The position numbers and the translations under genes were made by a program. 64,000 bases of DNA from Legionella sp. GTDB lineage: Bacteria > Pseudomonadota > Gammaproteobacteria > Legionellales > Legionellaceae. Shown one piece after another: positions 1,626-47,313 of the stretch; the stretch's first letter is position 1; each line of letters opens with the position of its first letter. A model generated the notes under the pieces. It was not told the origin of the DNA and did no database searches. It saw only the letters and a program-made list of their open reading frames with translations. The stretch is taken from assembly GCA_002786165.1 (NCBI GenBank), contig PEQK01000017.1, forward strand, positions 1 through 64,000, read 5' to 3'.

Positions 1626-1696
1626 TCAATAACTTATTTTTTTCCCTTTTTTCCTTTTTGCGCCGATCCCTCCGCGCCTTGATGTAGCAAGGAATA

Positions 1697-14398: not shown

Positions 14399-14616
14399 CA
14401 CACATCCTCCATAATGATCAGCACCTAGTGTGAGGAATTATGAACAAGAAATCAAAGTTTTTTTATCAAAAAATTGCAATATTGAGAACATCAACTACAC
14501 TTTAAATGAGCATACATGATCTTCACTTGCAATATGACTAGTAAGAGACTTTCTTAGTAGGCCATAAATGAAGAAAAAACCGCTCATATTGCAGTTTAAT
14601 AAATTAGGAGCACACC

Positions 14617-14706
14617 ATGTTAAAGAAAGCTGCTAAAAAAGCTGTTGATAAAACCAAAGAAAAAGCAAAAAGCACTATCAAAAGCAAAACACGCGCTAAG
14701 AAATAA
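14617..14706 (+). CDS. Tiny Lys/Ala-rich basic peptide (29 residues)
   Basis: A short open frame with a good AGGAG six bases before its ATG and a terminator-like hairpin 20 bp after its stop. It encodes 29 residues, of which 13 are Lys or Arg, with repeated (K/A)KKA and TKEKAK patterns and no hydrophobic segment. The composition recalls the tails of histone H1-like bacterial proteins. A nucleic-acid-binding role is only a guess. The 215 bp upstream hold no other gene and may contain its promoter; it stands between a minus-strand operon and kdoO. Confidence 0.6.
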   Translation: MLKKAAKKAVDKTKEKAKSTIKSKTRAKK

Positions 14707-14726
14707 TATTGCTTTATGATCTGTGT

Positions 14727-14759
14727 AAAACGGGTTGTGACTTTGTCACCACCCGTTTT
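14727..14759 (+). terminator. Hairpin after the tiny basic ORF
   Basis: AAAACGGG...GTGAC pairs with GTCAC...CCCGTTTT around a TTT loop, with two unpaired bases in the stem. The hairpin lies 20 bp after the stop of the 29-residue ORF and ends in TTTT, as expected for a rho-independent terminator. It would separate that gene from kdoO. Confidence 0.7.
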
Positions 14760-14806
14760 CATATCTGAGACACAAGTCGCATTTCATCCCCACATTTGTT
14801 AAACTA

Positions 14807-20778: not shown

Positions 20779-20937
20779 TAATTCAATCGCAATCTGAACG
20801 ACACCAAAAGAAGACTAAAAAATGAACTGGAGCCAAATTGAGATTGGCAATTGCGTTTTAATTTCGAACAGATTACTATTCTGACCATAAAAGCTATGAC
20901 TTCAGTTCATTGTAATACTTTGACCAAGGAGAGGATG

Positions 20938-27708: not shown

Positions 27709-30567
27709 TTAAGCCAAGGATGGAGATGATGCTCGCGATGACGCATAGCTTTCGCTATCTGCAGGGCTTTCGCTTCTTGGGACACGATTAGAATTCACAG
27801 AAAATAAAATAGCTTTATTTTGACTGTGGGCCAACAAAGGTGTTGGAGCAGATGCAGGCGTATATTCAGCAATACTGACATTCCAACCACAGCTATTCAT
27901 AGGAACCAATCGATTAGGTGTGCCTGTTGTTTGATCAAATCCCCACCACATGCTGCTTTGAGATCCATCTTCCCAAGCTAGAAAAAAGGCACCATTTTCC
28001 ACACGAAGCCCCATGTGATCTCCTTTTTTAATTTCTGTATAAGGCATAGGTATCACTTGAACACTGCCAATGATAGTGAGATCAACTGTGAGGGGAATAC
28101 TGTGAGATACCTCAAATGTATCACCCGTTTGTTTATAAATATCCAGATAGCACTGACCGGTACAAGTATTATAGAGCTCAAGCTCCAGAGCATTTAACAC
28201 GCCATCTACTGAAATAGGAATATTAGGGATAACTGGGGAGCCTATGTTGTACATCACATGAACTGACTTTATAGGAGGAAAACAAGTTATCGGCTGGGCC
28301 AGACTGCCCGCCCACTCATAATAAGCTAGGGGCGCGAGGTTATTTTTTAAAAAATAGCCTTGAAAAGAATTCGCATCCCAAGCAAATTCAATCACGCCCC
28401 CTACAGGCCACAACGGATCTGTTGCGGCTTGCTGCGCCATCATCCCATCTAAATCGGTGATGGTCAGTACAAGATTCTGCGTGGTTTCATTGACAGTAAG
28501 GGCAATATTTCCACTGATATCAGCCCAATCTGGGTTGCTAGGCGTTCTAATTTGCACGCACATCACCGGCGAGGCATTTCCCGATTGATAACTATAACCC
28601 ATTCTAAGCAAAAGACCCTCTTGCATGGATAGTCCAGCCGAAGACGGTGGAATCGTTGGGCTACTTTGACTTGCAAGTTGGCTGGAATAAATAGAAGGCG
28701 GTATTGTGCCGTGTACAGTATAGGTGATGAGAGTATCCGCTGTTGTTCCTTGGCGTATTGTCCCTGAAAACGCTAACCCATCTTGAGTGAGCTGAATTGA
28801 ACCCGTCCTAAACAAGCCAGGGGATTGCTCTTGCCAACTAATTGTATTGGTGTTTTTATCAAATTGAACGTTATTGATCAGATGACCATCAATATACAAT
28901 TGGTGATCATTCAGTAAAACTGTACTTGGAGCAGTAGGCATATCCAGTGTATTGCTCATAGAAGGATCTTGCACGGCTTGCAATGTGTAAGCACGTTTTA
29001 TATTAGGAAGATCGGGCATACTATTATTAGGGTTTTCTACAGCGGCGAGATTCATACTACCAAGCTTAGTAGTAGCCTCAAGGAAAGGAATGACACCTTG
29101 CAATGCTTGTATTAAGGCATTGCCCACAAATGATCCAATACTTTTCTGAAGCAATGGCATAATAGACGCCAATTGTTTTTCAATATAGTTACGCTCCGCA
29201 GGGCTCAACTTTGCAAAACCCGTACTTAACCTTTGTACCGTAAGGACTGGGTAATTCATTTTGACGCAATAACCATTCGCATGATACGAAAAAGCCCCAT
29301 CGATCAAATGTAAACCGTATACTTTATCTCCTTGAAACAGAGCGCTTTCCGTAAAACCGTGAATCGTTACCTCTTCATATTGAATAGGCATGGTTTGAGG
29401 AATAACACGCGAAATGACGTCTCCGAGTTCTAGTGCCCCAACAGTGACACCAGGATTTTCCTCTTCTGCGACATGAGGTAAAATCGCTTTCCAGCCAGCA
29501 TCTGTCCAAAACAAATGTCCGCCTGTAAAAAATGGTTTACTGCCATTGATGCCAAAAATAGGGGTTGCTTTATCAAGCACCGTAATGACTTGCTCGTCAG
29601 AATGACAGGCTGTGCGTCCATCTTTACCCATAATCTGATGATTGGGGCGTATTTGTTCAATAGGTAACAAAGTGCCATCAGCTAATAAAACTTCGGTGCC
29701 TTCGACAAAACAAGATCCGCTTATTCCGTTATATTTATTTACATTATGAATATTATCTGGACCATCTTGGGTTGTTAAACTTAGTCCTGACGCTTTTTGT
29801 TGCAAAAAAGCTTGAACAGCTTCTCCATAATATTCAGTACCACTTTCAGAAACCCCAGATCCAAAGCCCCCGCTGGTGGTCTGTACTGTACTACGACAAA
29901 TGTTTATCGCCTGATTCACCTGACTTATAAAGACATCACCTGTAAACATAGAAGCAGGAATATAATTTTGTATATCCCAATTTTTTACCACACCTTTGCC
30001 CGGTGCCGCTTGGGTCCAGCGGTCCAATACTGTTTGGACCAATGAATCGTCTAAGCAATGTATTTTGTATAAAATGAGATTAATCTTGTTTAACCAATTC
30101 GCATCGCCTGCTATTTCTTTTAATAAAACATCATTAATATAACTATCGGTTGTGACAGCATCTTTCAAAGAAGCGCCCCATTGAGAGCGATTGTTCGCTA
30201 AGTAATCATTAAAAGAAGCGCCATCTGCCTGACAATAGGTTGCAAAAGCAGCATCATATAAAGATTGACCATGCTGTACTGCCTCCTGGCTATTTAATAG
30301 ATTCGTCCAAAATCCATCAGCGACGGATGCATTAACACATTTATTAAATCCTTGTAGAGATGTTCTAGCAATCGCTGAGCACACCAAGCCAGTTGCAACA
30401 TGATCTACAAAAGTTTGATTAACAGGCACGGGTGCAGCCGGTTCAGTTGCAAAAAAAACAGGTTTCACAACAGATGAGTTTTTAATTTGAGACATGAACG
30501 TGGTTTTGAGTGATGCAATAACACCGGTATCTACAAGTTGTAATAAATTTTCTACTGATAACGTCAT
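27709..30567 (-). CDS. Hint-domain protein with shared helical and beta modules, 952 residues
   Basis: Order: a helical region (about 1-280), a Hint autoprocessing domain (about 285-435) and a beta-rich region with repeated modules (about 540-950). The Hint domain opens with GSCFVEGTEVLLADGTLLPI (nucleophile Cys), has the block-B T-x-x-H in FFTGGHLFW, and closes with YHANGYCVKMN. That end lacks the usual His-Asn pair and a following Cys/Ser/Thr, so splicing is unlikely and N-terminal cleavage more plausible. The beta module (NTNTISW, then QLTQDGLAFSG) and part of the helical region recur in the 821-residue neighbour. A TAGGA precedes the ATG. Hint domains of this sort are frequent in polymorphic toxins. 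No signal peptide. Confidence 0.75.
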   Translation of the reverse strand: MTLSVENLLQLVDTGVIASLKTTFMSQIKNSSVVKPVFFATEPAAPVPVNQTFVDHVATGLVCSAIARTSLQGFNKCVNASVADGFWTNLLNSQEAVQHGQSLYDAAFATYCQADGASFNDYLANNRSQWGASLKDAVTTDSYINDVLLKEIAGDANWLNKINLILYKIHCLDDSLVQTVLDRWTQAAPGKGVVKNWDIQNYIPASMFTGDVFISQVNQAINICRSTVQTTSGGFGSGVSESGTEYYGEAVQAFLQQKASGLSLTTQDGPDNIHNVNKYNGISGSCFVEGTEVLLADGTLLPIEQIRPNHQIMGKDGRTACHSDEQVITVLDKATPIFGINGSKPFFTGGHLFWTDAGWKAILPHVAEEENPGVTVGALELGDVISRVIPQTMPIQYEEVTIHGFTESALFQGDKVYGLHLIDGAFSYHANGYCVKMNYPVLTVQRLSTGFAKLSPAERNYIEKQLASIMPLLQKSIGSFVGNALIQALQGVIPFLEATTKLGSMNLAAVENPNNSMPDLPNIKRAYTLQAVQDPSMSNTLDMPTAPSTVLLNDHQLYIDGHLINNVQFDKNTNTISWQEQSPGLFRTGSIQLTQDGLAFSGTIRQGTTADTLITYTVHGTIPPSIYSSQLASQSSPTIPPSSAGLSMQEGLLLRMGYSYQSGNASPVMCVQIRTPSNPDWADISGNIALTVNETTQNLVLTITDLDGMMAQQAATDPLWPVGGVIEFAWDANSFQGYFLKNNLAPLAYYEWAGSLAQPITCFPPIKSVHVMYNIGSPVIPNIPISVDGVLNALELELYNTCTGQCYLDIYKQTGDTFEVSHSIPLTVDLTIIGSVQVIPMPYTEIKKGDHMGLRVENGAFFLAWEDGSQSSMWWGFDQTTGTPNRLVPMNSCGWNVSIAEYTPASAPTPLLAHSQNKAILFSVNSNRVPRSESPADSESYASSRASSPSLA

Positions 30568-30625: not shown

Positions 30626-33091
30626 TTACTCCACACCCTCTGGCATGACCGCATCATGCCACGTCACCTCACTTTTTCCTCTACGTAAGGTTGTTGTAGC
30701 GGCACGATATTGGGCCTTAGGTGCGGATGGCAAGCTAGTGATAAACGGTCTTAGATTGTTATCCATAAAGATGTCAACAGGAGATTCAGGCGGAGAACTT
30801 GGTTTAAACAATTCCACCATAACAAATATCAAACCAATCACAGCAAAAATAGCGCCAGCGGGACCAAAAGCTGCACTAACTTCCATAAGCTCCAGGGTTA
30901 AACATACTGTTTCAATTGCGGCACTGGCAGCAATAATGCCATCAAACGCTTTTTGCTCTGTAGAAGCGCCGTCTCTGATATCTTTGTAGAAAGTGATTGT
31001 ATTCACAACAGCAAAAGCAGCTGCGCATGCTGGTCCCAGCCATTTTAAAAAAAGTCTTCCCCCACTCAGCAAACTATCAAACACTGTACCTTCAATTTTA
31101 ATTTCTTTGGTTTCCACATCAAACATCGCTTCTATCGTTTTATTACCACTGCCTAACCAATCACCGTCGGCAAATTCTAAACCTGAACCAATTTCACCTA
31201 GTGCATTTTCTCCTGATATCAAATTTTTAAAATCAACCAGATCTTCAAAGGCAGCCTTTCCTATTTTTAGGAGATCCGGAATAGCTTCGATAGCTTGGCC
31301 TGTCAATTGAACCAAAGTGGTAATTAAGTTTACTTTTTCTAGAGTATCTAACGATTTCCAATTTTCAAATCCCTGAATAACAGCAATCAGAGATCCCACC
31401 CACATCGCTATTTTTATACATTTTGCTACGGAAGCACCTAGTTCCAATAACTTAGGATTATTGGCTATAAAGGAGTCTTCTGCGGCAGATGCACGACTAA
31501 AGATAGTGCCTGTTTGACCAGCCGCTGTGATCGCATTTGCAAGCGCATCCGCTAATGCAAGCACACCCCCCATTTGCTCCGCAGCCGATTTCATATCTTG
31601 TGCTAATTGTTGTTTAGCAGCTTGAGCAGCCGTAGGGTTTGTTGGGAGAGTAATATATTGATTAATAAAAATTTGAATATAATCAGTCAACCAAGACAGT
31701 TGATCTTTATCATCTAATTTGGCGTTGTTTGTAAGATTTGTAAGGCAAGCTAATAGAATGGTTTTATGATATTGCGTGGCCAAATCTCCACTAGATTGTA
31801 GCGTATAAAGCAAAGTCGAATACCGATTAACCAGCGTCATATCTCCAGCAATAGAAATTCGATTGACCATCAAAATAATTTGTTGAGGAGAGATGATGGC
31901 ATCATACAATTGCTGTGCCCAATTCGATGCAGTATCATCAATATACTGCTGTACACGCGGTGCTGCGCCAACAAACGCCAAGCGATTGATGATATTCATC
32001 TGAAGGTTATATCCTGGCTCCTTAGCAAGCCCTGTTTTTAAATAGTTTTCCAATTGAGTTTTTTGATCGGATGTTAAGGGCGTCTTTGGTGCGCCTTGTC
32101 CTGACATGCTATCTAATCCCCATCCCATATAGGCAATGGCCAGTTTTGTTTGATAAAAACTGAGATCTTGGTTGATGGATTGTTGTCTTTCAGCAGAAAG
32201 ATTTGGCTGTACTTCACCAAAGAACTGATTCAACCAATCGTTGTCCATTTGACCAATAGCCCATTTCATATTTTCAATCAGTAAATTTTGAGAATTTTGT
32301 TGCATCGCATCCGACGATGGGGCAATAGTATGTAGCTCGGTCACAGACAAATCATCTGTTGCAACTAATGCTACTGCTGGTACATTCTCTTCTATGAAAT
32401 TTTGGATGATTGGATTCGCTAAATGAGCAGTCCAAACATTTTTTTCTCCATTTTGAGCTTCTATATCTCCTGTCAATGACGTTGTATCTGCTGAAATTTC
32501 AAAGGTACTCTTTGTCATACCGGAAAAGAATACAGACTGTTTTTCTGGACTTTCCAGAGTGATATTCAATCCATTTGTTTCAGGGTTAATGGTAGTAGTT
32601 GCACAATGAGTGACATCTTGCCAATCTAGATTGTCTGAAGCTTTCAGCTGTACGCGTAACACTGGGAAGCTATCTCCCAATAGATTTTCTGTATAGACAT
32701 AATCAATTTGAAGGATTGGTGTAGGATGTTGTAGTTCGCTAAGAGAATTTTTGTACACCAAAGGATCTGTGATACCACAAACCATATAAGGCAACGCTGT
32801 TTTCACATCTGTGCCATGAGAAAAATGGCCAGACAATGATAAACCATCGTCCGTTAAATGAAGGACCCCGGCGCTAAAAAATTTCTCCCCTTTTTCACAC
32901 CAGCTTATCGTATTAGTATTGGCATAAAAGCTAGGGTGCAAAATACGACGATTGTTTACAAATAGCTGGCCTGCACGCAGAAAAATTTTTGCCACACTTG
33001 CTTCGTTGGTATAGGTTTTACGTTCTTGATCCCAAGCTTGGATCGTGTAATTGCGTGTGATTTGTTGAGGATGAACCGCAATATTTTTCAT
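30626..33091 (-). CDS. Partner of the Hint protein; beta module, helical domain and hydrophobic segments, 821 residues
   Basis: The N-terminal 240 residues carry the same beta module as the Hint protein (NTNTISWCEKGEKF, LHLTDDGLSLSG). A helical domain follows (about 270-520), with a stretch around NWAQQLYDAIIS and ISIAGDMTLVN that resembles the helical part of the neighbour. Near the C-terminus are three hydrophobic segments (IAMWVGSLIAVIQGF, CAAAFAVVNTITFY, AAFGPAGAIFAVIGLIFVMV) that could insert into a membrane, as in pore-forming proteins. A strong AAAGGAG lies eight bases before the ATG, and 254 bp of non-coding DNA precede it. It therefore probably starts its own transcript with the Hint gene 58 bp downstream. 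Family unknown. Confidence 0.7.
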   Translation of the reverse strand: MKNIAVHPQQITRNYTIQAWDQERKTYTNEASVAKIFLRAGQLFVNNRRILHPSFYANTNTISWCEKGEKFFSAGVLHLTDDGLSLSGHFSHGTDVKTALPYMVCGITDPLVYKNSLSELQHPTPILQIDYVYTENLLGDSFPVLRVQLKASDNLDWQDVTHCATTTINPETNGLNITLESPEKQSVFFSGMTKSTFEISADTTSLTGDIEAQNGEKNVWTAHLANPIIQNFIEENVPAVALVATDDLSVTELHTIAPSSDAMQQNSQNLLIENMKWAIGQMDNDWLNQFFGEVQPNLSAERQQSINQDLSFYQTKLAIAYMGWGLDSMSGQGAPKTPLTSDQKTQLENYLKTGLAKEPGYNLQMNIINRLAFVGAAPRVQQYIDDTASNWAQQLYDAIISPQQIILMVNRISIAGDMTLVNRYSTLLYTLQSSGDLATQYHKTILLACLTNLTNNAKLDDKDQLSWLTDYIQIFINQYITLPTNPTAAQAAKQQLAQDMKSAAEQMGGVLALADALANAITAAGQTGTIFSRASAAEDSFIANNPKLLELGASVAKCIKIAMWVGSLIAVIQGFENWKSLDTLEKVNLITTLVQLTGQAIEAIPDLLKIGKAAFEDLVDFKNLISGENALGEIGSGLEFADGDWLGSGNKTIEAMFDVETKEIKIEGTVFDSLLSGGRLFLKWLGPACAAAFAVVNTITFYKDIRDGASTEQKAFDGIIAASAAIETVCLTLELMEVSAAFGPAGAIFAVIGLIFVMVELFKPSSPPESPVDIFMDNNLRPFITSLPSAPKAQYRAATTTLRRGKSEVTWHDAVMPEGVE

Positions 33092-33345: not shown

Positions 33346-36300
33346 CTAGGGTCTTTGTGGGAGGTCTATATGATTTGATTGTTCAGGCTCATTTTTATTT
33401 AAAAGAGTATTAAAACCAGCCACCATACTATCCGCAAGTACATTAGACTTGTTTATAAGTTTATGCCCTGCTTCAGCCAGCGTCGTAAAAGCAATTTTAT
33501 CAACAGCAGCACGCTGCATTATCAAGCTAGAAAAAAATCGACCATGGCGATAATAGTCTTGTGCTTGCTCCAGATTATCAACACCTTGCTGTCTAATGTG
33601 TTGAATTGTTTCTTCATCATAAAAAACATCCGCCACCTCAGATATGAGTAATCCAGCCGCTACCGGAGGTGCGGCTCCTGCCAAACCTACTTTTTTTAAA
33701 CCAGCTTTTATGCCCCAATCTATACAGGCATCCACCACAGTTAACGCCGCTCCTTTTTTGAACGTATCTTCCTTGGCCACATTATCATCCAAAAGTGCTA
33801 ATTCAGAATTCATCCCTAAACTCCACAATCCACCTAATTTACGAACATGCTTTCCTCCCTTTAGGTGTTCTTTTTTACTGATGTTCGAGTGAGATGTTTT
33901 CTCCAAGATATTTGCATCTATTCCTTTTGCCATCTCCTCAAAAACAGCTCCGCCATAGGCTTCTGCCAAGGTCGCGACCGCGGTTGTGTTTTGGTTTTTC
34001 GGATTTTTCTGTGCGTTTGTAAAAACTGGCGCTTTGGCATCAGAGATTGGATCTATATGTTCATCAGCTCTGGATGACACCTTCCTGTTTTTACGACGTC
34101 GAGAACGATGTAATGCAGTATCAATTGCATCTTCTTTTACAGGGACAATTGGTTCAGGACGCCCAAAATCAACCGGATCATGATGAAATGGCTTAGGATG
34201 CAGTAACGTATTTAGCCGATCTTCTGCCCCGCTAACATGGGTTTGTGCATTCTTTAAATACAGTTCATTCGTTAAAGGAATATCTACCGCAAAATGAGTA
34301 TGATGATTTTTTATAACTATGGCGCCCTCAGGATGTTGCGTTACAATACCGCCCTGTACATTGGGCGTATCTAATTTGGTTCCCTCGCGACCGTAAATAA
34401 CGGGTATTTGCATCGCAACATAGTCGTTGGCATCCATTTGGAAAGCCAGAGAGGCAATCAATGGTTCTCCCGCAGTATCAGACGGTTTATGACCAAAGGC
34501 TCGTCCCAAATCATGTGGATTTCCCGAGAGGCCCAGGCCGTGAAAATCCTCAGTATCAGGTAATGACTCGGCAATAAGCTGGCCTGTTTTAAAATGATTG
34601 ACACCATCCGTAGTGATCTTGCCCCCTATCATATGAGTTTTATCAACTTCGACTTCGTGGCCTTTAGAGTTAATGCCTTCTATCACATGAATGCCACTAT
34701 GTTGAGTCGTGGTATGTTTATCGCTCTTCCCTTGATAAAAACCAACTTGACAGGTTGTAGAAAGACTCAATGATTGGGTTTTTGTTTGACGAGTATCTTG
34801 TTGATCTTGAACGGTCAAAGTAACAATCTTTGCATTCCACGACTGAGACTGTAAATTTGAGGTATTTAATATACATTTTTGCATCTTGCCACCGTTATGA
34901 TGCAAAGACATGTTCCCGCCCGCAGAAAGTATTGTATTGATATAATGTGTGGATGAGGTATTCGTTTTGTTTACAGACAAACCTAAAGATTGAATGCCTT
35001 CTGCTCCCACGATCCCAAAACTTTCGGTATGTGCGGTTTGGTGAGTTGTTGAATGCAATGGTTTGCCATGCACTATAAGCGATGGTGTATTGAATTCCAT
35101 ATTTCCATCCACATGAAAATCACCGCCCCCTATATCAATACCCTCACCGGCTATAAATACTGCATGACCACCCCGCTGAATACCGCCTTGTCCTTGCGTT
35201 TGGAACTGGGTTTTCGTCTTTTTTTGAGTGTAGGAAAGGGTCACAGATGGGGAAAAATGCCCGTCATGACCTAACCCATATCTTGCCAACAATTCATTTT
35301 TCATAGTGCCCTGAGTCATACCACGCATCAAATTGTTGCCGGTATTAGCCAGATCAATCCCTAAATTTGTAGTATTCGCTAATTGTTCTGAACCAGATTG
35401 ACTGTGGTATAACGAACGCATTTTACCCAAACTTGGATCAAATGCTGCACCAACTTCTCCAACCCTTCCTCCACGTTTATAGCTATCCCAAGCACCCATA
35501 CCAGGTATTGACCATTCCAACGACCGACTTTTTTCTGTCATATCATGGTTTAATACATCAACATCCCAAATGATTCGCTTTTTGGCTCGCATTTCTATAT
35601 TTCCAGAACCAATAAAATAGGCGCCTCTTGCATCGATATTGCCTTCTGCTGAATGAATCCTGGTGGTGCCATTGTCTAAACATAAAGTAGGCTGTGAAGA
35701 CTGGTATACATGATCGCGTTGTGCATCAAACCAGTCTAGGCGATAATTGACGTTTTCAAGTACTCTATTGTTTGTTTTCAAGCCATATAGTTTCACATCT
35801 CCTCTTGCATACACATCAGTGCCTTCTGGTGAAACAAATTGCGCTGCAATCGATGTCACCTCTCCTTCACCAGAACGAATAATATTACGAGCGCTACCCG
35901 AATAAACATGCGATGTACCTATATCCGTATCCGTTACAAGCGTTTGAATTTTTTTATCTCTTACTTTATCCCAAGCCAATTTAGCATCGTTCAAGATATT
36001 CCAGCGACTTTTATGTTTATCTCCACAGTGAACATCCTGTGTTTGCTGCAAGCTGGTATAAACGTGGTATTTTGCTTTAAAATCGACGCCTTTCTTGCCC
36101 TCAATATAATTGATACCTTGACTGATAAAATCGGAAGCCTCCGCAATAACCCGTCCATCTGCCTTGATATACAATCCTATACCATCTGTATCAGCCCCTG
36201 TTCCGCCTGCAATCACCCCTGCTTGATAATAACGTCTGCTGTCATATTGACCTTGATACGCTTGCTCTTTACATAGATTAAGAACATTCCCTTTGGCCAA

Positions 36301-37074
36301 CAATTGAGTATATTTTCCAGAACCAATGTACGCTCTGTTTTCAATATTACCCTGTGCATCAAAAAATAATTTATCACTCGCATAGGCCACGCCATTTTCA
36401 AAAATATGTCGGGCTGATGTTGCATAAATATTCAAGGCCTTTAAGTTGTTATTCAGAGTAATATCCCCTTGAGTAGACATAAACGATAAACGATACGCTT
36501 TGTCATACTCAAAAGAGCTCACAATACTGGCTGCTTTTACAGAAATATCACACTCACGCGCAATAGAATGTGACAATGAAACATCGTCTTTTGTAACCAA
36601 AGATAAACTTTTATTCACTTGGTATTTTGCATATTTCCCAAGTCCCGCAACAAATTTCGCTGCGTCACTAAAATGCTCGATGTCATAGACGACATTCTCC
36701 AACGCCCCGCCACCTTCTAATTCGGCTGCTTTCGCTTGCACATACAACGTATTTTTTTTATCTGAACCTTGTGGCAGAACCCGCACAAAACCCGTATGCC
36801 GATATTTATCGGCCACTATCCCAGACTGACCGGCATAGCTTAATTGACTATCGTCTTGCAAAGAGTGCGCGATCAAACTGCTGTCGATTAACTCAGGGTG
36901 CGCAGTATAGGCAAACTTTATGGCGTCAATTTGAGCCTGTGAATCATCAGACAAATGAAACAATCCTGCCCCATGCAAAGAGTCTCCTTTCATGCTCGAG
37001 TGTTTCAGAGATAACCCGTGTTGCTGTCCTATTTGAGTATTATCTAGTGTGATATTAAAATTATCTAAGGACAT
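33346..37074 (-). CDS. FHA/CdiA-like haemagglutinin-repeat protein without export signals, 1,242 residues
   Basis: The chain is built of beta-helix repeats like the FHA-2 region of CdiA/FhaB: units such as VISQGINYIEGKKGVDFKAK-like DFISQGINYIEGKKG, NIEMRAKKRIIWDV and VQDQQDTRQTKTQSLSLS, followed by HVIEGINSKGHEVEVDKTHM-like HVIEGINSKGHE. Around residue 1,020 a basic linker (RSRRRKNRK) leads to a C-terminal helical region with a hydrophobic patch (VGLAGAAPPVAAGLLI). No signal peptide, no TPS secretion domain and no VENN motif are visible; the start lies 14 bp inside the small membrane-protein gene, so it is translationally coupled. Family members are normally exported by a TpsB partner, which is absent. 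It may be a headless derivative or use another secretion route. Confidence 0.7.
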   Translation of the reverse strand: MSLDNFNITLDNTQIGQQHGLSLKHSSMKGDSLHGAGLFHLSDDSQAQIDAIKFAYTAHPELIDSSLIAHSLQDDSQLSYAGQSGIVADKYRHTGFVRVLPQGSDKKNTLYVQAKAAELEGGGALENVVYDIEHFSDAAKFVAGLGKYAKYQVNKSLSLVTKDDVSLSHSIARECDISVKAASIVSSFEYDKAYRLSFMSTQGDITLNNNLKALNIYATSARHIFENGVAYASDKLFFDAQGNIENRAYIGSGKYTQLLAKGNVLNLCKEQAYQGQYDSRRYYQAGVIAGGTGADTDGIGLYIKADGRVIAEASDFISQGINYIEGKKGVDFKAKYHVYTSLQQTQDVHCGDKHKSRWNILNDAKLAWDKVRDKKIQTLVTDTDIGTSHVYSGSARNIIRSGEGEVTSIAAQFVSPEGTDVYARGDVKLYGLKTNNRVLENVNYRLDWFDAQRDHVYQSSQPTLCLDNGTTRIHSAEGNIDARGAYFIGSGNIEMRAKKRIIWDVDVLNHDMTEKSRSLEWSIPGMGAWDSYKRGGRVGEVGAAFDPSLGKMRSLYHSQSGSEQLANTTNLGIDLANTGNNLMRGMTQGTMKNELLARYGLGHDGHFSPSVTLSYTQKKTKTQFQTQGQGGIQRGGHAVFIAGEGIDIGGGDFHVDGNMEFNTPSLIVHGKPLHSTTHQTAHTESFGIVGAEGIQSLGLSVNKTNTSSTHYINTILSAGGNMSLHHNGGKMQKCILNTSNLQSQSWNAKIVTLTVQDQQDTRQTKTQSLSLSTTCQVGFYQGKSDKHTTTQHSGIHVIEGINSKGHEVEVDKTHMIGGKITTDGVNHFKTGQLIAESLPDTEDFHGLGLSGNPHDLGRAFGHKPSDTAGEPLIASLAFQMDANDYVAMQIPVIYGREGTKLDTPNVQGGIVTQHPEGAIVIKNHHTHFAVDIPLTNELYLKNAQTHVSGAEDRLNTLLHPKPFHHDPVDFGRPEPIVPVKEDAIDTALHRSRRRKNRKVSSRADEHIDPISDAKAPVFTNAQKNPKNQNTTAVATLAEAYGGAVFEEMAKGIDANILEKTSHSNISKKEHLKGGKHVRKLGGLWSLGMNSELALLDDNVAKEDTFKKGAALTVVDACIDWGIKAGLKKVGLAGAAPPVAAGLLISEVADVFYDEETIQHIRQQGVDNLEQAQDYYRHGRFFSSLIMQRAAVDKIAFTTLAEAGHKLINKSNVLADSMVAGFNTLLNKNEPEQSNHIDLPQRP

Positions 37075-37339
37075 TCGTCCATCTATCTGTCCAGATTTGG
37101 CGGCAATGAACCTGTTCTAGTGCTCGTTGATTGGAAATCTCTTTTCTATAATAACTTGCTCCCGCAGCTACCGCGGCCACACAAGTCGCAGTGGTACCTA
37201 TTATTAACTGCGTTCCATACGCAGTCACAAGCACTGCCCCGCCAGGAATCATACCCAATAAAATTGCTCCTCCTGCCAAAGCACAACAGCCTAAAACAAT
37301 GCTGATTTTTCCAGAGTTATTTTCTAATGCATCAATCAT
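37061..37339 (-). CDS. Small two-helix membrane protein, 92 residues
   Basis: Two hydrophobic segments (SIVLGCCALAGGAILLGMI and GTQLIIGTTATCVAAVAAG) are followed by a basic tail. The ribosome site GAGGAG touches the first Met codon at 37345 and is six bases from the second at 37339, so the latter is taken as start, MIDALENNSGK. A truncated relative at 39777-39881 begins MFETLESNSGK, which supports this choice. It overlaps the FHA-like gene by 14 bp and follows the 300-residue membrane protein gene by 10 bases of spacing or less. Such a small holin-like protein next to a large exoprotein could assist export, which is a hypothesis. Confidence 0.7.
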   Translation of the reverse strand: MIDALENNSGKISIVLGCCALAGGAILLGMIPGGAVLVTAYGTQLIIGTTATCVAAVAAGASYYRKEISNQRALEQVHCRQIWTDRWTNVLR

Positions 37340-37349
37340 TTCCATCTCC

Positions 37350-38240
37350 TCAATTCAATCTGTTTTCTACTACATTGGCTATACGGTTTCCAGCCAGACG
37401 TACCGTGGCATCTAAATCTCCCAATAATTCGCGAGCAACCTCTAGCACCTTCTGATGATGTTCTTCATAATTTGAATGCGCCTCTTCTACCAATGCAACA
37501 GTAATTCGACGCATCTCTTCGTTTGTTGTCCAATTCTCAAACTCTCCTTTTGGATAGGTTTTCACCAACTCATGATATGCGGCTAATAATTCAGAATGTG
37601 TTGAACAAGATTCTTTACTGCTTTGAGATTTTTCACTTTGGAAATAGGTTATTCCTTTAATCGATACATCAGAGTGTTTCTTACTAGCATCAAGACGCTT
37701 ACTTAGCTCTGAAGCCTCTGAATAATATTCTCTTATATTTCGCGATATAGCTCTTTTATCATCACCTGCTTCTGTCATGAATGACTCATATCTTTCCATT
37801 GCATGTGTGATCAACTCAAGCCGGTCTCTTAACGGTGCTTGTGGTGCAACTGGTGGTTCACTTCTACAAAGAGTTGAAAGTACCGAAAAAACGGTACTAA
37901 TCAGTCGACACAAAACAACGAGCGTATGTAACAAAGACAATACAAATACACCTAATGTTTTTAATCCAATATAAGCAGCACGCTGCCCATCAGCATAGTT
38001 TTCTTTGGATAGCTCATACAACCACCTATAAAAATAGCAAGCGCGCCCTACAGCAGCCAATGATTCGAGCAAAGTGGCTACAGTCAAAACCAAATATTTA
38101 CAAGGGGAAACAACAATGTTTCCTAACTCCCATCCAAATTCTTGATACGATGCAAATGGCTTTACAACATAAGCACCTGGATGCTGAAATAAATCCTTTT
38201 TCAACTCATTCTCTGCAATAGGAGTAAAATATCTATTCAT
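37350..38240 (-). CDS. TTNE/EEHH-family membrane protein, copy 3
   Basis: Two hydrophobic segments (LVLTVATLLESLAAVG and VFVLSLLHTLVVLCRLIST) are followed by a long helical domain. This contains ITYFQ, ELLAAYHELVKTYPKGEFE, WTTNEEMRRITVALVEEAHS and NYEEHHQKVLEVARELLGD. The family is unknown to me. Copies at 38249-39037 and 39884-40516 share these motifs, the first at high DNA identity. Start at ATG 38240 with GAGGG upstream; a GTG at 38252 overlapping the previous stop is the alternative. It is coupled to the small two-helix gene downstream. Confidence 0.72.
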   Translation of the reverse strand: MNRYFTPIAENELKKDLFQHPGAYVVKPFASYQEFGWELGNIVVSPCKYLVLTVATLLESLAAVGRACYFYRWLYELSKENYADGQRAAYIGLKTLGVFVLSLLHTLVVLCRLISTVFSVLSTLCRSEPPVAPQAPLRDRLELITHAMERYESFMTEAGDDKRAISRNIREYYSEASELSKRLDASKKHSDVSIKGITYFQSEKSQSSKESCSTHSELLAAYHELVKTYPKGEFENWTTNEEMRRITVALVEEAHSNYEEHHQKVLEVARELLGDLDATVRLAGNRIANVVENRLN

Positions 38241-38248
38241 TTCGTCCC

Positions 38249-39037
38249 TCACATCTTCATATTAGATTGATGAGTATCTGTATTGGCTATATGGTTTCTA
38301 ATCAGACGTACCGTGGCATCTAAATCTCCCAATAATTCACTAGCAACATCTAATACCTTCTGGTGATGTTCTTCATAATTTAAATGCGCCTCTTCTACCA
38401 GTGCAACAGTAATGCGACGCATCTCTTCGTTTGTTGTCCAATCCTCAAACTCTCCTGTCGGATAGGTCACAACCAACTCATGATATACCGCTAACAATTT
38501 AGAATATGTTGAACCAGATTCTCTACTGCTTTTAGATTTTCTATCCTGGAAATAGGTTATTCCTTTAATCAATACATCAGACTGTTTTTTATTAGCATCA
38601 AGACGCTTATTCAGATCTGAGGCTTCTGAATAATACTCACTGATACATTGCGATATAGCCCTTCTATTAGCACCGGCCTCTTTAATGAAATCTCTGTATC
38701 TTTGTATTGCATTTGAGATGGAGTTGTTATCTTTGGTTTGTGAAATCACCACACCATCTGTCTCACATTTTATAATATTCGAAAAAACGGTACTAATCAG
38801 TCGACACAAAACAACCAACGTATGTAACAAAGACAATACAAATAGCCCTAATGTTTTTAATCCAATATAAGCAGCATGCTGTCCATCAGCATAGTTTTCT
38901 TTGGATAGCTCATATAATGACCTGTATAAATAACAAGCGCGCCCTACAGCGGCCAATGCTTCGAGCAAAGTAGCCACAGTCAAAACCAAATATCTACTAA
39001 GATATTTCTTGGTTTTGATCAAAAATCGCTCGAACAT
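38249..39037 (-). CDS. TTNE/EEHH-family membrane protein, copy 2
   Basis: Close paralogue of the gene downstream, with the same two hydrophobic segments (LVLTVATLLEALAAVG, LFVLSLLHTLVVLCRLIST) and C-terminal ITYFQ, WTTNEEMRR, YEEHHQKVLDVASELL. The N-terminus is shorter by about 35 residues (MFERFLIKTKKYLSRY), possibly because an IS insertion and deletion upstream removed its original start. Only a weak AAAGG precedes the ATG. The middle linker differs most from copy 3. Near-identical DNA in the flanking blocks points to a recent tandem duplication. Confidence 0.7.
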   Translation of the reverse strand: MFERFLIKTKKYLSRYLVLTVATLLEALAAVGRACYLYRSLYELSKENYADGQHAAYIGLKTLGLFVLSLLHTLVVLCRLISTVFSNIIKCETDGVVISQTKDNNSISNAIQRYRDFIKEAGANRRAISQCISEYYSEASDLNKRLDANKKQSDVLIKGITYFQDRKSKSSRESGSTYSKLLAVYHELVVTYPTGEFEDWTTNEEMRRITVALVEEAHLNYEEHHQKVLDVASELLGDLDATVRLIRNHIANTDTHQSNMKM

Positions 39038-39167
39038 ACCTTTGGAATTGGTGCGACACTAAATAATTAAATACATCTTCCACCATCTTATCTATCTCAA
39101 ATCTTGACGTTGGAAATGTAGCCCAAGGAAAAACAGAATAGTAAATACAGATACTAGAGACTTATTA

Positions 39168-39808
39168 CTATGAGTAGAGCAACAGCAATACATAAATAAT
39201 GAGTCCGCGGGGAGGTTTTCGGCCCCATATAGCCATTTGTAGCGCATCTATGACCAATTTCTTTGTCATACGTTCCGACATGGCCCAGCCAACAACCTTA
39301 CGTGAATACAAATCTATAACAACAGCGAGATAGAGCCAGCCTTCTTCTATCCAGCAGTACGTTATATCACTGACCCATTTTTCATTGGGTTTATAGGCAA
39401 AGAAATGCTGCTGTAACAAATTAGGGGCAACAGGTAACTGATGGTTGCTGTTTGTTGTTGCTTTGAATTTTTTCGCCGCTTTTTTTAAGAAGGCATTCTC
39501 CTCAGTAAGCCTCGTGTTTTCTCGTTTCAAACGAGCTAATTCCGCTTGTTGAAGCTTTTGATTTTCCAGTGTATTACCACCTTGTTTGCGTTGGGCACGC
39601 CACGAATACAAAAGCGATTCTGCCAAATCAAGATCTTTTGCCACTTGAGGTACGCCTTCTTTATCTGCCCGTTCTAAAGCTTGATCTTTAAATTGAGGAC
39701 TGTATTTCTTCCTGGTTAATTTTTGTTCCAAATAATTATTCTTCATTTTTCACCTCTGCTTAAGGATTTTACTCTCTTAGCAGGGTGGCCGACAGTTCAG
39801 GGCAGGAT
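39168..39808 (-). mobile_element. IS3-family element remnant (orfA fused to partial orfB)
   Basis: The 192-residue frame 39168-39746 begins as an IS3-type OrfA ([18 protein letters not shown], then [13 protein letters not shown] and a Leu-zipper [18 protein letters not shown]). It then jumps to OrfB at [17 protein letters not shown] with two DDE-core segments ([19 protein letters not shown]). The sequence between is deleted and the frame ends after GRKPPRGLI, before the last Asp and Glu. The element's left end appears to lie near 39808, inside a small membrane-protein gene. Confidence 0.8.
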
Positions 39809-39881
39809 CACCTCCAGTAGTTGTTACCCCAATAAGTACTAAACAAATTTTTCCAGAATTACTTTCTAATGTTTCAAACAT
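39777..39881 (-). pseudogene. Truncated copy of the small two-helix protein
   Basis: The frame from ATG 39881 (AGGAAG five bases upstream) reads MFETLESNSGKICLVLIGVT and then TTGG. This parallels MIDALENNSGK and SIVLGCCALAGG of the 37061-37339 gene. At about 39808 it runs into the IS3 end and stops at 39777. The second hydrophobic segment is lost. It directly follows copy 1 of the TTNE/EEHH family, so the ancestral unit was a two-gene pair. Confidence 0.65.
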
Positions 39882-39883
39882 GT

Positions 39884-40516
39884 CTACTTCCTCGTCATCG
39901 CTGTTGATCTTTCTAATACTTTAAATTCTCTAAAAACATCTTTTACGCTTTGCATTAGAATACCTGATTCAGATAACAATTCTTCAGCTATCCCCAAGAA
40001 TTTGGCATGATGTTCTTCGCAATTTGAGTGGGCTTGCTCAACCATTTGCAACGTCAAGCTGGTTTGTGCTTCATTGGTAGTTAGTCGCTCTAATCCAAGA
40101 ACAGGATAAGTCTTGAATAGTTCTTTGTATTCTCTAAGTAATTCGGAGTATCGAGAACTTCTGGGCTTTTTACTTGCATTTGGATAGTTTTGAAAATGGG
40201 TCATTCCTGCAACAGTCACAGAACTTTTCATTTTGGATTTTTCTATCGCAACTTGTTCTTCAAGAACAGAAAAATCTGAATCTTGTTCACGCAAAACAGC
40301 CTCGATTATCTCTTTATCTGCATCTACTTTCCGCAGAAATTCAACATATTCCTCTAGAGCATCTGTAACAAGTTTACTGTTTTGATCTAATAAATACGAC
40401 GAGGCGGTGTTTGACTGGGACTGTCTATTATAAACAACCCCAAAGAGTGTCAATATCGGAATAGCAATTGCACTAAATATCCCCATCGTTTTAAGATCTG
40501 GTAATTCATAGCTCAT
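39884..40516 (-). CDS. TTNE/EEHH-family membrane protein, copy 1 (diverged)
   Basis: 210 residues with one N-terminal hydrophobic segment (FSAIAIPILTLFGVVY) and a helical cytoplasmic-type domain. The domain shows MTHFQNYPN, SELLREYKELFKTYPVL, RLTTNEAQTS and EQAHSNCEEHHAKFLGIAEE, which align with the other two copies, although overall identity is low. It is the first gene of the minus-strand array. The 226 bp upstream, shared with a divergent secreted-protein gene, must hold its promoter. Function unknown. Confidence 0.68.
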   Translation of the reverse strand: MSYELPDLKTMGIFSAIAIPILTLFGVVYNRQSQSNTASSYLLDQNSKLVTDALEEYVEFLRKVDADKEIIEAVLREQDSDFSVLEEQVAIEKSKMKSSVTVAGMTHFQNYPNASKKPRSSRYSELLREYKELFKTYPVLGLERLTTNEAQTSLTLQMVEQAHSNCEEHHAKFLGIAEELLSESGILMQSVKDVFREFKVLERSTAMTRK

Positions 40517-40742: not shown

Positions 40743-41081
40743 ATGTCGGTAAAAAAAATCGTACTCGCACTTGCAGCATCATCCATCTGGTTGACAAGCG
40801 CATACGCTGGATCAGAAGATTGGAAAGGCGTATTTGTCGTTCGAGGTAGCGACGGCAATGAATACACCATCCGTCACACCCCTAGCAACGTGCGTTTTCT
40901 CTTTATGAGCGCAGGACAATGCATGCATCTTAGCAAAGGCTCTTCTATAAATGGTTTGGTCATGCCTGAAAACATCGACTTATGCACCAATCTGAATGTT
41001 GATGATTTCACCAAAGAAATGCAAAAACTCGGTGTCATTATCAATGAGTCTATTGAGATGGGACAAACTTATACCGTCTAA
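40743..41081 (+). CDS. Small secreted protein, 112 residues
   Basis: A clear Sec signal peptide (MSVKKIVLALAASSIWLTSA, cleavage after AYA) precedes a mature chain of about 89 residues with two Cys. AAGGA lies seven bases before the ATG and a strong hairpin follows the stop, so it is a single-gene transcript. I recognise no family. Its part MPENIDLCTNLNVDDFTKEM is repeated, at identical DNA, in the pseudogene at 44499. Confidence 0.75.
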   Translation: MSVKKIVLALAASSIWLTSAYAGSEDWKGVFVVRGSDGNEYTIRHTPSNVRFLFMSAGQCMHLSKGSSINGLVMPENIDLCTNLNVDDFTKEMQKLGVIINESIEMGQTYTV

Positions 41082-44353: not shown

Positions 44354-44498
44354 GAATAACCCGGGATATTTTTGAATCATTATAACACAAAAAATACATA
44401 TTTAAATCTAAATGAAATATGTAATCTAGCTATGGGAGCGTTGTATCTCCATCTTTGCAACATAGTATTTCATTCGACAAAACTCATAGTTGCGATAC

Positions 44499-44749
44499 TG
44501 GAGTGATGCCTGAAAACATCGACTTATGCACCAATCTGAATGTTGATGATTTCACCAAAGAAATGCAAAAACAGAGAACGCAGAAGCCCATGCTCAGTTT
44601 GCAACCGCTAAGATCCGAAGCAACTAAATGTGCCGATGCTTTATCCAAGGCCTGGCATTTTGGTTACGAAAGACTTGGCGTTCGATTTAGGCTTTAATGA
44701 GGATTTCTTCGAGGAGGAAGAACCTTCAACGAACAGGACACTCCCTGTG
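44499..44749 (+). pseudogene. Chimeric fragment of two neighbouring orphan genes
   Basis: About 67 bp from 44505 are identical to 40962-41028 (MPENIDLCTNLNVDDFTKEM). Then follow decayed pieces that match 42500-42660, the 3' part of the 151-residue orphan (ATKCADALSKAWHF, then in another frame LAFDLGFNEDFFEEEEPS). Promoter, signal peptide and frame are lost. The 3' part overlaps the antisense end of the 890-residue gene. Confidence 0.75.
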
Positions 44750-47313
44750 CTGAATATTCTGTCTGTTGGGGGCGCTGGTCTCGAAGATTTAAAAAGTCCA
44801 GAAGACCGGTTTGAGGGAGGCGCTGGAAAAAGTTTCAAGCAAGCTTGGTATTTTTGGCCTTTTTCCAATTGTCTTTGTACCTCTTCAGGCAAGCTATCTT
44901 TTAATATATAAGCCCCGACGTTTCTTATGGGTACATTTCTCTTTTGCATAGACTTTAACATTAAGTATTGATATTTAAACAACACCTCATAATCATCAAA
45001 AGTAGGTAATAAAATAGCAAGTGTTGATAAATAACCTGCAAAACTCGATAGATATTCTTGCTCTTCATTTTTGCTTTCCCAGGAAAATCTTATGCTTTTA
45101 TCAATAAATTTTCTAATACTCCGCAATCCACCATCACCCATCGATAAAGACATACTATTTATTTCCTGTAGTATAGCGCGCAACTTTTCAACCTCCTTAA
45201 CTGAACAAATAGATTTTTCTGCGCCTGTAAAAACATACGTATACCGAGCGTTCTTTTCATCAAAAACAGCCTTCTTTTTTTCTATCTCATCAGCAAATAC
45301 ATAGCACGATAATGCATAGCGATAAAAGAAAACTTCATGTTGAAATTTCATGCTGCCGCCATGCTCCTGGTGAACGCCCAAAACAAGCGCCAAGTAATAA
45401 GAAGTAAGCGTAGCAATATTAGAATCTTCCGGGCGCAAATACTTGTCATCACAATAATCAAACAATGGCTTCATCAAAGGATTGGCTGCCAAACGATAAT
45501 CTGTTGAAACAATATCTAAGATATTTTCCATAGCATCATCTTCTTGAGTAGCCAACAAAACATAATCAGCATTAAAATCATAAAGCCCTGGTGCTTCTGC
45601 CAATGCTAATGTCTTATCACTAAGCATCAGTTCTCGGCTATATTTTTTTATATCAATAGGCACAGCATGTCGAAGCAATTTTTGGTGACGCAATGTTGCA
45701 CCATGTTTAAAAAGAAGCGATATAAGATCGGTCATTTTTCGATCATCAAAAAACGACGGTAGATAGTTATAGCGCTGAGAAATAACCAAAAAATACAATA
45801 TGTTATAAAAGCCAGCATGGCCAATAATAGAAAACTGTACCGAATTAGGAGATACATCCTGCTCCAAATACATTTGAACCACCTCCAAATCACATCGCAT
45901 GATAGCCACAGCTAACACGCCCAGACTCGCGTGTATTGTCACGGATGGACATGACAATAACATTTCGCTTTCAACCTGCTGAAATAAATAAAACACCGAA
46001 CGATAGACAGAAGAATTTGCATATAAATCATTCGCTATAGCAATATATTTTTTTCGCTGTATTTCAATTTCCTTAAATGTCCGTATATCCACAGCCAATT
46101 GCTCTATTTTTTCCAATAAGGACCAATACGTTGGTTTTAAGTCGATGTAGGGCTCTATGCCAAACAACTTGGACATAACACCTATATCACCAGATAGCAC
46201 TAATACATTAAAACAACCTACCATATCCTCTAAAAGCTTGGTCAGCTGGCTATCCAACTTTTTCAGTTGAGACGTAAAAGAAGAGGTCGTACTACCAATA
46301 TAAAGCTCAATAAGATTTTTTTGTACGGTCAACACCTCCACATACGTCACGCTCTTGACAAAGAGATTCGGATCACTTTGAAAATTGGTCACAAATGTAT
46401 TAACTTGATCTTGTAGTGCAGTCAAAGCCCTGCCATCCTCACTAACTGTGTTCAATACACTTTTACCCGTCTTAACAATAGGCCTCAGAGTAAATGCATT
46501 CTCACTATCAGGCACTGCGACTGCTTCTAAAGAAGGCAATGAAGGAGCACCTTTTACTCCTAATAACCGTTGTTCATACTGTTTGATCCCACGCTCAAAC
46601 ATATCCAAAAAACACTTTCGGCCATCTTGTACAATAGCTTCGTCTAACAAGCTCACAAGACAAAGCGCTTGTTTGTATCGTTGTAAGGTATCTTTAATAA
46701 TCTCAAAATTTTCTGTCGAGGCTGTTTGCTGCAACAACGAAGTCAACTTGTCATTCAGGATCGGTGCATCTTCATTTGCTTTCAAATAAATTTGTGTTTT
46801 TAAATCAAGCAAATCAGTTAATAACTGCTTATAGGCCTTGAATTGTTTTTGAGAGGTTATGGTATATACCGTTTTCTCATTCAACACAGATGTGCCGAGC
46901 GAATTATCGCCTGAATACTCTGTTACATGAGCAGAACGATACCCGCCACAAGAATCAAAATACACATGAATCACTCTACTACAAGTAGATGTACTCGCAT
47001 GTTGATAAATAGCCGTGTAATGATGAGGAGATAATACATCGACATGAATATTAAAATCTCTATCAATCGATAAATGCTCTTTTTTCAATACAAAATCAGG
47101 AAACAACTTAGGATCAGTAACCACTGGTGCAGTAATATACCAGGCGTGTCTTTGTTCATTACCACTAGGAGACACTGAAAAGTCCCTTTGATATACATCT
47201 TCTTGGAAATTCGCAATGTAATGGTACAAACTATTTTCTCTTTTGGCGCCTGCTGGCTTACTCACTACCACATCTTGCTCAGACTTTGTTATAGGTTCCT
47301 TTTTTGTATACAT
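44641..47313 (-). CDS. Large orphan with ankyrin-like segment, 890 residues
   Basis: No known family covers it. The N-terminal region has a beta-rich part (HVDVLSPHHYTAIYQHAS). The middle (about 200-480) is helical. Around residues 490-570 ankyrin-like units appear (HASLGVLAVAIMRCDLEVVQ, then a segment with SLLFKHGATLRHQKLLRHAV). The last 35 residues (SSSSKKSSLKPKSNAKSF) are read antisense through a duplicated fragment of another gene, so the original C-terminus has probably been replaced. No signal peptide or membrane segment. Effector-like by composition. Confidence 0.65.
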   Translation of the reverse strand: MYTKKEPITKSEQDVVVSKPAGAKRENSLYHYIANFQEDVYQRDFSVSPSGNEQRHAWYITAPVVTDPKLFPDFVLKKEHLSIDRDFNIHVDVLSPHHYTAIYQHASTSTCSRVIHVYFDSCGGYRSAHVTEYSGDNSLGTSVLNEKTVYTITSQKQFKAYKQLLTDLLDLKTQIYLKANEDAPILNDKLTSLLQQTASTENFEIIKDTLQRYKQALCLVSLLDEAIVQDGRKCFLDMFERGIKQYEQRLLGVKGAPSLPSLEAVAVPDSENAFTLRPIVKTGKSVLNTVSEDGRALTALQDQVNTFVTNFQSDPNLFVKSVTYVEVLTVQKNLIELYIGSTTSSFTSQLKKLDSQLTKLLEDMVGCFNVLVLSGDIGVMSKLFGIEPYIDLKPTYWSLLEKIEQLAVDIRTFKEIEIQRKKYIAIANDLYANSSVYRSVFYLFQQVESEMLLSCPSVTIHASLGVLAVAIMRCDLEVVQMYLEQDVSPNSVQFSIIGHAGFYNILYFLVISQRYNYLPSFFDDRKMTDLISLLFKHGATLRHQKLLRHAVPIDIKKYSRELMLSDKTLALAEAPGLYDFNADYVLLATQEDDAMENILDIVSTDYRLAANPLMKPLFDYCDDKYLRPEDSNIATLTSYYLALVLGVHQEHGGSMKFQHEVFFYRYALSCYVFADEIEKKKAVFDEKNARYTYVFTGAEKSICSVKEVEKLRAILQEINSMSLSMGDGGLRSIRKFIDKSIRFSWESKNEEQEYLSSFAGYLSTLAILLPTFDDYEVLFKYQYLMLKSMQKRNVPIRNVGAYILKDSLPEEVQRQLEKGQKYQACLKLFPAPPSNRSSGLFKSSRPAPPTDRIFSTGSVLFVEGSSSSKKSSLKPKSNAKSFVTKMPGLG

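What the first reader, a model, noticed from the sequence alone, without database searches (positions are those of the whole stretch)
33346..40516. Candidate new locus: tandem TTNE/EEHH membrane proteins, a two-helix protein and a leaderless FHA/CdiA-like giant
Three paralogous membrane proteins share ITYFQ-like, TTNE and EEHH motifs. Next to them are one intact and one truncated copy of a small two-helix protein, and then a 1,242-residue FHA/CdiA-like repeat protein. Overlaps (14 bp) and gaps of at most about 10 bp couple the last members. The repeated pair (TTNE/EEHH protein plus two-helix protein) suggests a functional unit that was amplified. No TpsB, signal peptide or VENN motif exists, so this does not match a known CDI or two-partner system.
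Basis: partly seen in the sequence, partly recalled or inferred. Interest (0 to 1): 0.8.

Follow-up and report, generated by a model that had tools for sequence, protein, structure and literature searches.

The report
Cut-down giant beta-helix membrane operon
A genome from the Legionella family carries a cut-down copy of a gene cluster, unbroken in several relatives, that pairs a roughly 3,000-residue protein, predicted to fold as a long beta-helix and without a recognisable secretion signal, with small membrane proteins that likely hold it at the bacterial membrane.

Summary
The window lies in a Legionellaceae genome and holds an eroded copy of a conserved operon that our searches found undescribed. 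Copies with an unbroken giant (11 of 23 giant-bearing genomes of the family, L. feeleii among them) read: EEHH membrane protein(s), a small two-helix membrane protein (182-380 aa), a leaderless giant (about 2,560-3,150 aa), often a TPR or membrane gene. In the window the 1,242-residue giant is only the C-terminal ~40%; about 5.3 kb is missing relative to its congener. The '14-bp overlap' is the scar: the last ~14 codons of the 94-aa 'two-helix' ORF are giant DNA out of frame. It fails the tested marks of two-partner secretion and CDI (signal peptide, TPS domain, variable C-terminus; TpsB inconclusive). New clue: giants and accessory membrane proteins, unrelated in sequence, share a short tail motif (strict form in 10 of 15 giants, 7 of 16 two-helix proteins, 7 of 9 accessories of a second clade, 15 of 234 controls). 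Best explanation: a membrane-docked giant handled outside Sec/TpsB. Chief rival: a set of Dot/Icm substrates. Location and export are untested.

The parts
33346..37074 (-). C-terminal 1,242 residues of the giant leaderless beta-helix (FHA-like) protein; N-terminal ~1,660 residues absent
   Evidence: Aligned to residues ~1665-3000 of the 3,021-aa L. feeleii protein and 867-2116 of the 2,128-aa G002 piece; beta-helix predicted for residues ~615-935
37061..37345 (-). Truncated two-helix membrane protein gene (94-aa ORF; only the first ~80 codons are its own)
   Evidence: 43.75% identity to residues 1-76 of the 224-aa G002 protein; tail codons are giant DNA out of frame
37061..37110 (-). Deletion scar: giant-gene DNA next to two-helix gene DNA; makes the 14-bp overlap
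   Evidence: In the giant frame, codons before the ATG read IAAKSGQIDGR, as IAAKSGKIDGK in G002; about 5,289 bp absent relative to G002
37350..38252 (-). EEHH protein A (long form; predicted TM segments then EEHH domain)
   Evidence: Relatives in the same place in other genomes; hydropathy
38249..39037 (-). EEHH protein B (74% identical to A, lacks about the first 50 residues of A)
39168..39746 (-). IS3-type transposase remnant, 192 aa
   Evidence: rve 69.0 bits, HTH_Tnp_1 40.7 bits; NF033516 158 bits, cut-off 160
39813..39881 (-). Remnant (first 23 codons) of a second two-helix gene, next to the IS3 remnant
   Evidence: tblastn 56.5% over 23 aa, E 0.009; 47-bp repeat 81%
39884..40516 (-). EEHH protein C (short form, one predicted TM segment)

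Best explanation
The locus is a cut-down copy of an operon, conserved in Legionellaceae, whose unbroken form encodes a roughly 3,000-residue protein without a recognisable signal peptide, predicted to be a long beta-helix, together with EEHH and two-helix membrane proteins that likely dock it at the inner membrane. Shown by sequence: gene order, unbroken giants in relatives, the truncations and the scar in the window, and the shared tail motif. Predicted: beta-helix fold and membrane segments. Inferred and untested: (1) the EEHH domain, on the cytosolic side, recognises the F-F-type motif in the C-terminal tails of both the two-helix protein and the giant; (2) this gathers the giant at the inner membrane; (3) it is then presented or moved across the envelope without Sec and without a TpsB pore, helped by the variable downstream envelope gene (a TPR protein with a signal-like N-terminus, or a multi-TM protein); (4) outside the cell it would act as an adhesin-like fibre. 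In this genome the giant has lost its N-terminal half and lacks the tail motif, and the two-helix protein has lost its C-terminal half, so the system probably does not work as in relatives.
Against: No experiment and no complex prediction links EEHH to the tails. G079 keeps the gene set without the motif in giant or two-helix protein, and clade II giants lack it, 0 of 5. The pattern was written after looking at the tails, homologues are not independent samples, the trained matrix mixes registers, and 13 (9 columns) or 14 (7 columns) of 20 giants stay below the 95th percentile of shuffled tails. Beta-helix matches are common and show no function. Giants carry 0.56-1.55% cysteine (G002 N-terminal piece 2.09%), near neighbouring ORFs (mean 1.28%, 109 ORFs), which suits a cytosolic or one-step-exported protein better than passage through the periplasm. 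EEHH occurs without a giant in 4 of 19 genomes.
Confidence: 0.42

Rival explanations
1. The operon encodes a set of Dot/Icm (type IVB) substrates: the EEHH and two-helix proteins would be transmembrane effectors put into host membranes and the giant a soluble partner, the shared tail motif being part of a secretion signal.
For: DotI/IcmL (PF11393) is in 18 of the 19 giant-bearing genomes tested, of 26 found, including 2 of 3 outside the family, against 52 of 369 in the class sample. No signal peptide seen, cytosol-like cysteine content, polar C-terminal tails, patchy presence with several remnants. Strongly hydrophobic Legionella transmembrane effectors are proposed to pass through an inner-membrane intermediate and need a C-terminal signal on the cytosolic side (PMC11602083, passages read); YlfA/YlfB have an N-terminal hydrophobic region and coiled coils (PMC4961411, abstract read).
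Against: G079, 99% complete, has no DotI match but keeps the giant with two small TM proteins in the usual positions. Glutamate clusters in the last 30 residues: 0 of 15 giants and 0 of 16 two-helix proteins of the main clade, 16 of 234 controls; clade II giants 3 of 5. Sixteen of the 18 DotI hits are in Legionellaceae, where the 4 family members in the class sample also had it, so they say little.
Confidence: 0.3
2. The giant is a purely intracellular membrane-attached scaffold, like a very large bactofilin-type polymer, and is never exported.
For: No signal peptide seen, cytosol-like cysteine content, weak Bactofilin similarity of the G002 N-terminal piece (PF04519, 23.2 bits, cut-off 27.9), membrane proteins with long soluble parts next to it.
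Against: The best structural matches over long stretches include exported passengers (EtpA, pertactin, UpaB, Ag43), and the downstream TPR gene of some genomes has a signal-like N-terminus.
Confidence: 0.15
3. It is a degenerate two-partner secretion or CDI locus that lost its TpsB, signal peptide and toxin.
For: PF13332 match over cut-off in the G013 giant; TpsA-like fold.
Against: The leaderless form recurs across genera and the giant is under purifying selection in three genome pairs, so it is no one-off loss; C-terminal blocks 2,701-3,000 conserved (mean pairwise identity 26-45%; the last ~20 residues vary), not hypervariable; linked EEHH and two-helix genes.
Confidence: 0.06

Closest known systems
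TpsA exoproteins of two-partner secretion (FHA, EtpA, HMW1, HxuA, HpmA)
   Different: No signal peptide or TPS domain detected; TpsB not found but without a ringing control; ordinary cysteine content; linked EEHH and two-helix membrane proteins
CdiA of contact-dependent growth inhibition
   Same: Giant protein with FHA-type repeats and a C-terminal helical part after a linker (predicted, low confidence)
   Different: C-terminus conserved instead of variable, VENN string in 1 of 18 giant ORFs, partners upstream in the main clade
Ylf/LegC-type transmembrane effectors of Legionella
   Same: Two-helix proteins also have an N-terminal hydrophobic part and a long charged C-terminal part (hydropathy; coiled coil judged by eye only)
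   Different: Conserved linkage to a giant; no glutamate block; a position equivalent in a genome without DotI; no family match above cut-off for the two-helix proteins scanned against Pfam or NCBIfam. No direct comparison with Ylf/LegC sequences was made.
Bactofilins
   Same: Weak PF04519 similarity in the N-terminal part of one giant piece
   Different: Below the cut-off; the giant is far longer than the 98-position profile and linked to membrane-protein genes

Membership tests
Two-partner secretion (TpsA) | N-terminal signal peptide for Sec | tested here: not met
   No stretch with mean hydropathy >=1.6 at the N-terminus of the 7 full-length giants examined or of the G002 N-terminal piece; residues 1-18 of the L. 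feeleii giant are under pLDDT 50. No dedicated signal-peptide program was run.
Two-partner secretion (TpsA) | TPS domain (Haemagg_act type) | tested here: not met
   Pfam scan at E<=0.05 of the G013 giant and the G002 N-terminal piece lists no TPS domain; no NPN string in the first 400 residues of 18 giant ORFs, 2 of which lack the N-terminal part (NPNL marks only one TPS subfamily, PMC5422565, passages). The fold alone does not settle it (EtpA match starts at EtpA residue 78).
Two-partner secretion (TpsA) | Cognate TpsB transporter | tested here: inconclusive
   PF03865 in 0 of 17 giant-bearing genomes (of 26 found), but no control genome rang; the class-wide control did not complete. Neighbouring ORFs were not each scanned.
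CDI (CdiA) | Hypervariable C-terminal toxin after a VENN-type boundary | tested here: not met
   C-terminal region conserved across six genera except the last ~20 residues; VENN string in 1 of 18 giant ORFs, G013
CDI (CdiA) | Immunity gene directly downstream | tested here: inconclusive
   Downstream gene differs by genome: TPR, multi-TM, none, or ABC ATPase with a giant-like stretch; function untested
Dot/Icm substrate | Dot/Icm apparatus in the same genome | tested here: met
   DotI/IcmL in 18 of 19 genomes, the window's own among them; not in G079. One marker only; the 14 control genomes did not ring, but 52 of 369 class genomes did.
Dot/Icm substrate | C-terminal E-block (in 65% of reported transmembrane effectors, PMC11602083, passages) | tested here: not met
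   >=3 E in 6 within the last 30: main-clade giants 0 of 15, two-helix 0 of 16, EEHH 1 of 20, clade II giants 3 of 5, clade II accessories 2 of 9, controls 16 of 234 (my own simple rule). Not required of every substrate.
Dot/Icm substrate | Dot/Icm-dependent translocation into host cells | not testable with these tools
   Needs an experiment; referred
Fil_haemagg_2 (PF13332) proteins | Match over the curated cut-off | tested here: met
   G013 giant 35.2 bits against 22; window protein 20.2, below

The most novel reading that the evidence does not exclude
A new, Sec- and TpsB-independent envelope system: EEHH and two-helix proteins form an inner-membrane dock that recognises a short F-F-type tail motif and handles 3,000-residue beta-helix fibres in Legionellaceae and a few other Gammaproteobacteria; two further large unknown proteins of this window (44641-47313, 52036-53763) carry the same tail motif and may be further clients.
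Probability: 0.28. Interest if true: 0.85.

Novelty: new variant of a known kind. Interest (0 to 1): 0.6.

Why it matters
Beta-helix giants are known as type V secretion cargo, with signal peptide and an outer-membrane pore. A conserved operon that keeps such a giant with no leader found, with its own membrane partners and a shared tail motif, makes one question directly testable: how does a cell place or export a 3,000-residue leaderless beta-helix? It also gives two unannotated protein families (EEHH, two-helix) a context in a well-known genus, and warns that the window copy, read alone, misleads about domain limits and coupling.
Full report
WHERE. The window is C9:1-64000 of a 1.95-Mb, 22-contig genome. 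Its family (f1) contains genomes whose contigs are named Legionellaceae bacterium, Legionella sp. and Legionella feeleii WO-44C (G164:C80 has the length of NZ_LNYB01000080.1), so I take the host for a member of Legionellaceae; its own name is not given.

WHAT IS IN THE WINDOW. On the minus strand, in order of transcription: EEHH-C (39884-40516), the first 23 codons of a two-helix gene (39813-39881), an IS3-type transposase remnant (39168-39746), EEHH-B (38249-39037), EEHH-A (37350-38252), a 94-codon ORF (37061-37345) and the 1,242-codon giant (33346-37074). EEHH-A and -B share DNA blocks at 89-92%. None of these EEHH, two-helix or giant proteins matches a Pfam or NCBIfam family above its cut-off.

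THE OPERON IN RELATIVES. The giant profile matches 23 of 143 family genomes, 11 of 33 genera. Fourteen have open frames of 2,283-3,152 codons, one is split (G002), three are cut by a contig end (G030, G172, G174), one is the window, four are small remnants (G014, G016, G121, G159). In 11 of the 14 (G007, G013, G029, G032, G043, G114, G116, G124, G161, G164, G168) an EEHH protein and a small TM protein lie upstream on the same strand; in G116 the EEHH match contains three stops, though a 172-codon frame is open. In the other three (G127, G150, G175) small TM proteins lie downstream. The gene after the giant overlaps or nearly touches it in five of the six loci measured that have one on the same strand: TPR proteins with a signal-like N-terminus (L. 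feeleii 14062-15831, overlap 7 bp; G043; G032) or a multi-TM protein (G007, G013); G079 has a 234-bp gap. Outside the family, 3 further genomes of a class sample of 369 (which also drew the window's own genome) match: G079, G210, G388. G079 has small TM proteins in the EEHH and two-helix positions; I placed them in the alignments by position, so their profile hits prove little. G388 has two small TM proteins on the opposite strand; G210 is a contig fragment. EEHH matches 19 of 143 family genomes; in 15 one lies beside a giant or giant fragment, in 4 not; G013 and G029 have further matches on other contigs. The profiles were built from some of these same loci (window, G002, G007, G013, G029, G032, G043, G079), so those hits are not independent.

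SELECTION. dN/dS of the giant is 0.25 (G164 vs G161), 0.20 (G124 vs G114) and 0.19 (G007 vs G013, dS 1.4); EEHH 0.53, 0.32, 0.43; two-helix 0.46, 0.58, 0.41. Window against G002 gives 0.18 with saturated dS, which says nothing on recent constraint in the window.

THE SCAR. The window giant begins where full-length relatives of the family are at residue ~1,432-1,754. Upstream of its ATG, the giant frame still reads IAAKSGQIDGR, matching IAAKSGKIDGK of G002. This DNA is the 3' end of the 94-codon ORF read in another frame; only its first ~80 residues match the 224-aa G002 two-helix protein. Relative to G002 about 5.3 kb is absent. An assembly join cannot be excluded without reads. I describe the scar only.

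NOT TWO-PARTNER SECRETION, NOT CDI, BY WHAT WAS TESTED. TpsA proteins are made with a Sec signal peptide and a TPS domain recognised by TpsB (PMC5422565, passages read). The giants tested show neither. TpsB: 0 of 17 genomes, but without a ringing control, so open. The C-terminal blocks 2,701-3,000 are 26-45% identical across six genera; the last ~20 residues vary. Giants contain 0.56-1.55% cysteine (one N-terminal piece 2.09%), neighbouring ORFs 1.28% on average (109 ORFs).

THE TAIL MOTIF. Giants and two-helix proteins of the main clade, which do not find each other in BLAST, have in their polar tails a motif such as NSFFS, GFFK, GLFS, SMFA, 15-52 residues from the end. The strict pattern [GSNKRAQ][FLM]F[SAKNRGP] is in 10 of 15 giants, 7 of 16 two-helix proteins, 7 of 9 accessories and 0 of 5 giants of clade II, 2 of 20 EEHH proteins and 15 of 234 other ORFs of the same loci, and in 12 of 297 ORFs of the window plus 18 stretches of the own genome, at least 4 of these 12 in hydrophobic segments by eye. 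A matrix learned only from two-helix tails (11 of 15; near-duplicates and G079 left out; several learned sites are not the motif) scores 20 giants above 255 controls (p 1.5e-4 for 9 columns, 2.9e-4 for 7), although only 7 and 6 of 20 giants exceed the 95th percentile of shuffled tails. The window giant and its truncated two-helix protein lack the motif, as do both proteins of G079. The G008 giant lacks a long middle part present in G116 but keeps the tail. I read this as a shared docking or targeting signal; its partner is unknown.

DOT/ICM LINK. DotI/IcmL is in 18 of 19 giant-bearing genomes tested, of 26 found, and in 52 of 369 class genomes. Outside the family 2 of 3 carriers have it, against 48 of 365 (my count), a weak excess. 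G079 lacks it. No E-block in main-clade tails by my rule; clade II giants 3 of 5. The link fits a host-associated life style as well as direct transport.

WHAT I CONCLUDE. Shown: a conserved operon, eroded in the window; a scar behind the reported coupling; a shared tail motif, with the limits told. Predicted: fold and membrane segments. Inferred: docking, route and adhesin-like role. Bench tests with genes of Legionella are left to others.

Noticed in passing
window 25427-27523 (-): 698-aa protein, distant paralogue of the N-terminal half of the giant (profile E 5e-13; ~24-28% identity), about 6 kb downstream of the giant fragment.
   Followed up: partly
window 27709-30567 and 30626-33091 (-): 952-aa and 821-aa neighbours share a 184-residue region (32% identity); the former has a Hint-like stretch (PF05203, 29.2 bits, cut-off 32.1).
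   Followed up: no
window 53773-58578 (-): 1,601-aa protein with NACHT (64.4 bits) and a HEAT-like match below cut-off (23.7 bits), an NLR-like architecture, followed by a 575-aa unknown protein.
   Followed up: no
window 44641-47313 and 52036-53763 (-): Two large unknown proteins carry the giant/two-helix tail motif (GLFK, GLFG) in polar C-terminal tails; possible further clients.
   Followed up: partly
window 20851-24837 (+): 1,328-aa protein with a weak AIG1-like GTPase match (21.3 bits, cut-off 27).
   Followed up: no
L029:7702-9030 (-), genome G079: 442-aa protein: a giant-like stretch and an ABC-type ATPase in one frame, downstream of the giant.
   Followed up: partly
L103:3185-6703 (-), genome G008: 1,172-aa giant that matches residues 26-1136 and the tail of the G116 giant but not its middle; a two-helix-like and an EEHH gene lie upstream, with a 336-aa gene on the other strand between them.
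   Followed up: partly
L099, L101 (genomes G009, G011): EEHH proteins without a giant, in clusters with other hydrophobic proteins of 286-404 aa; a related membrane-protein cluster of another kind.
   Followed up: no
L092:1-4530, genome G114; L104:9458-13128, genome G121: Tandem copies of the gene that follows the giant, alike at the N-terminus (three in G114, one cut by the locus end; two in G121); taken for TPR proteins by likeness, not scanned.
   Followed up: no
window 40743-41081 and 44455-44697 (+): 112-aa protein with a partial second copy; a 57% identical relative lies near the operon in G002.
   Followed up: no
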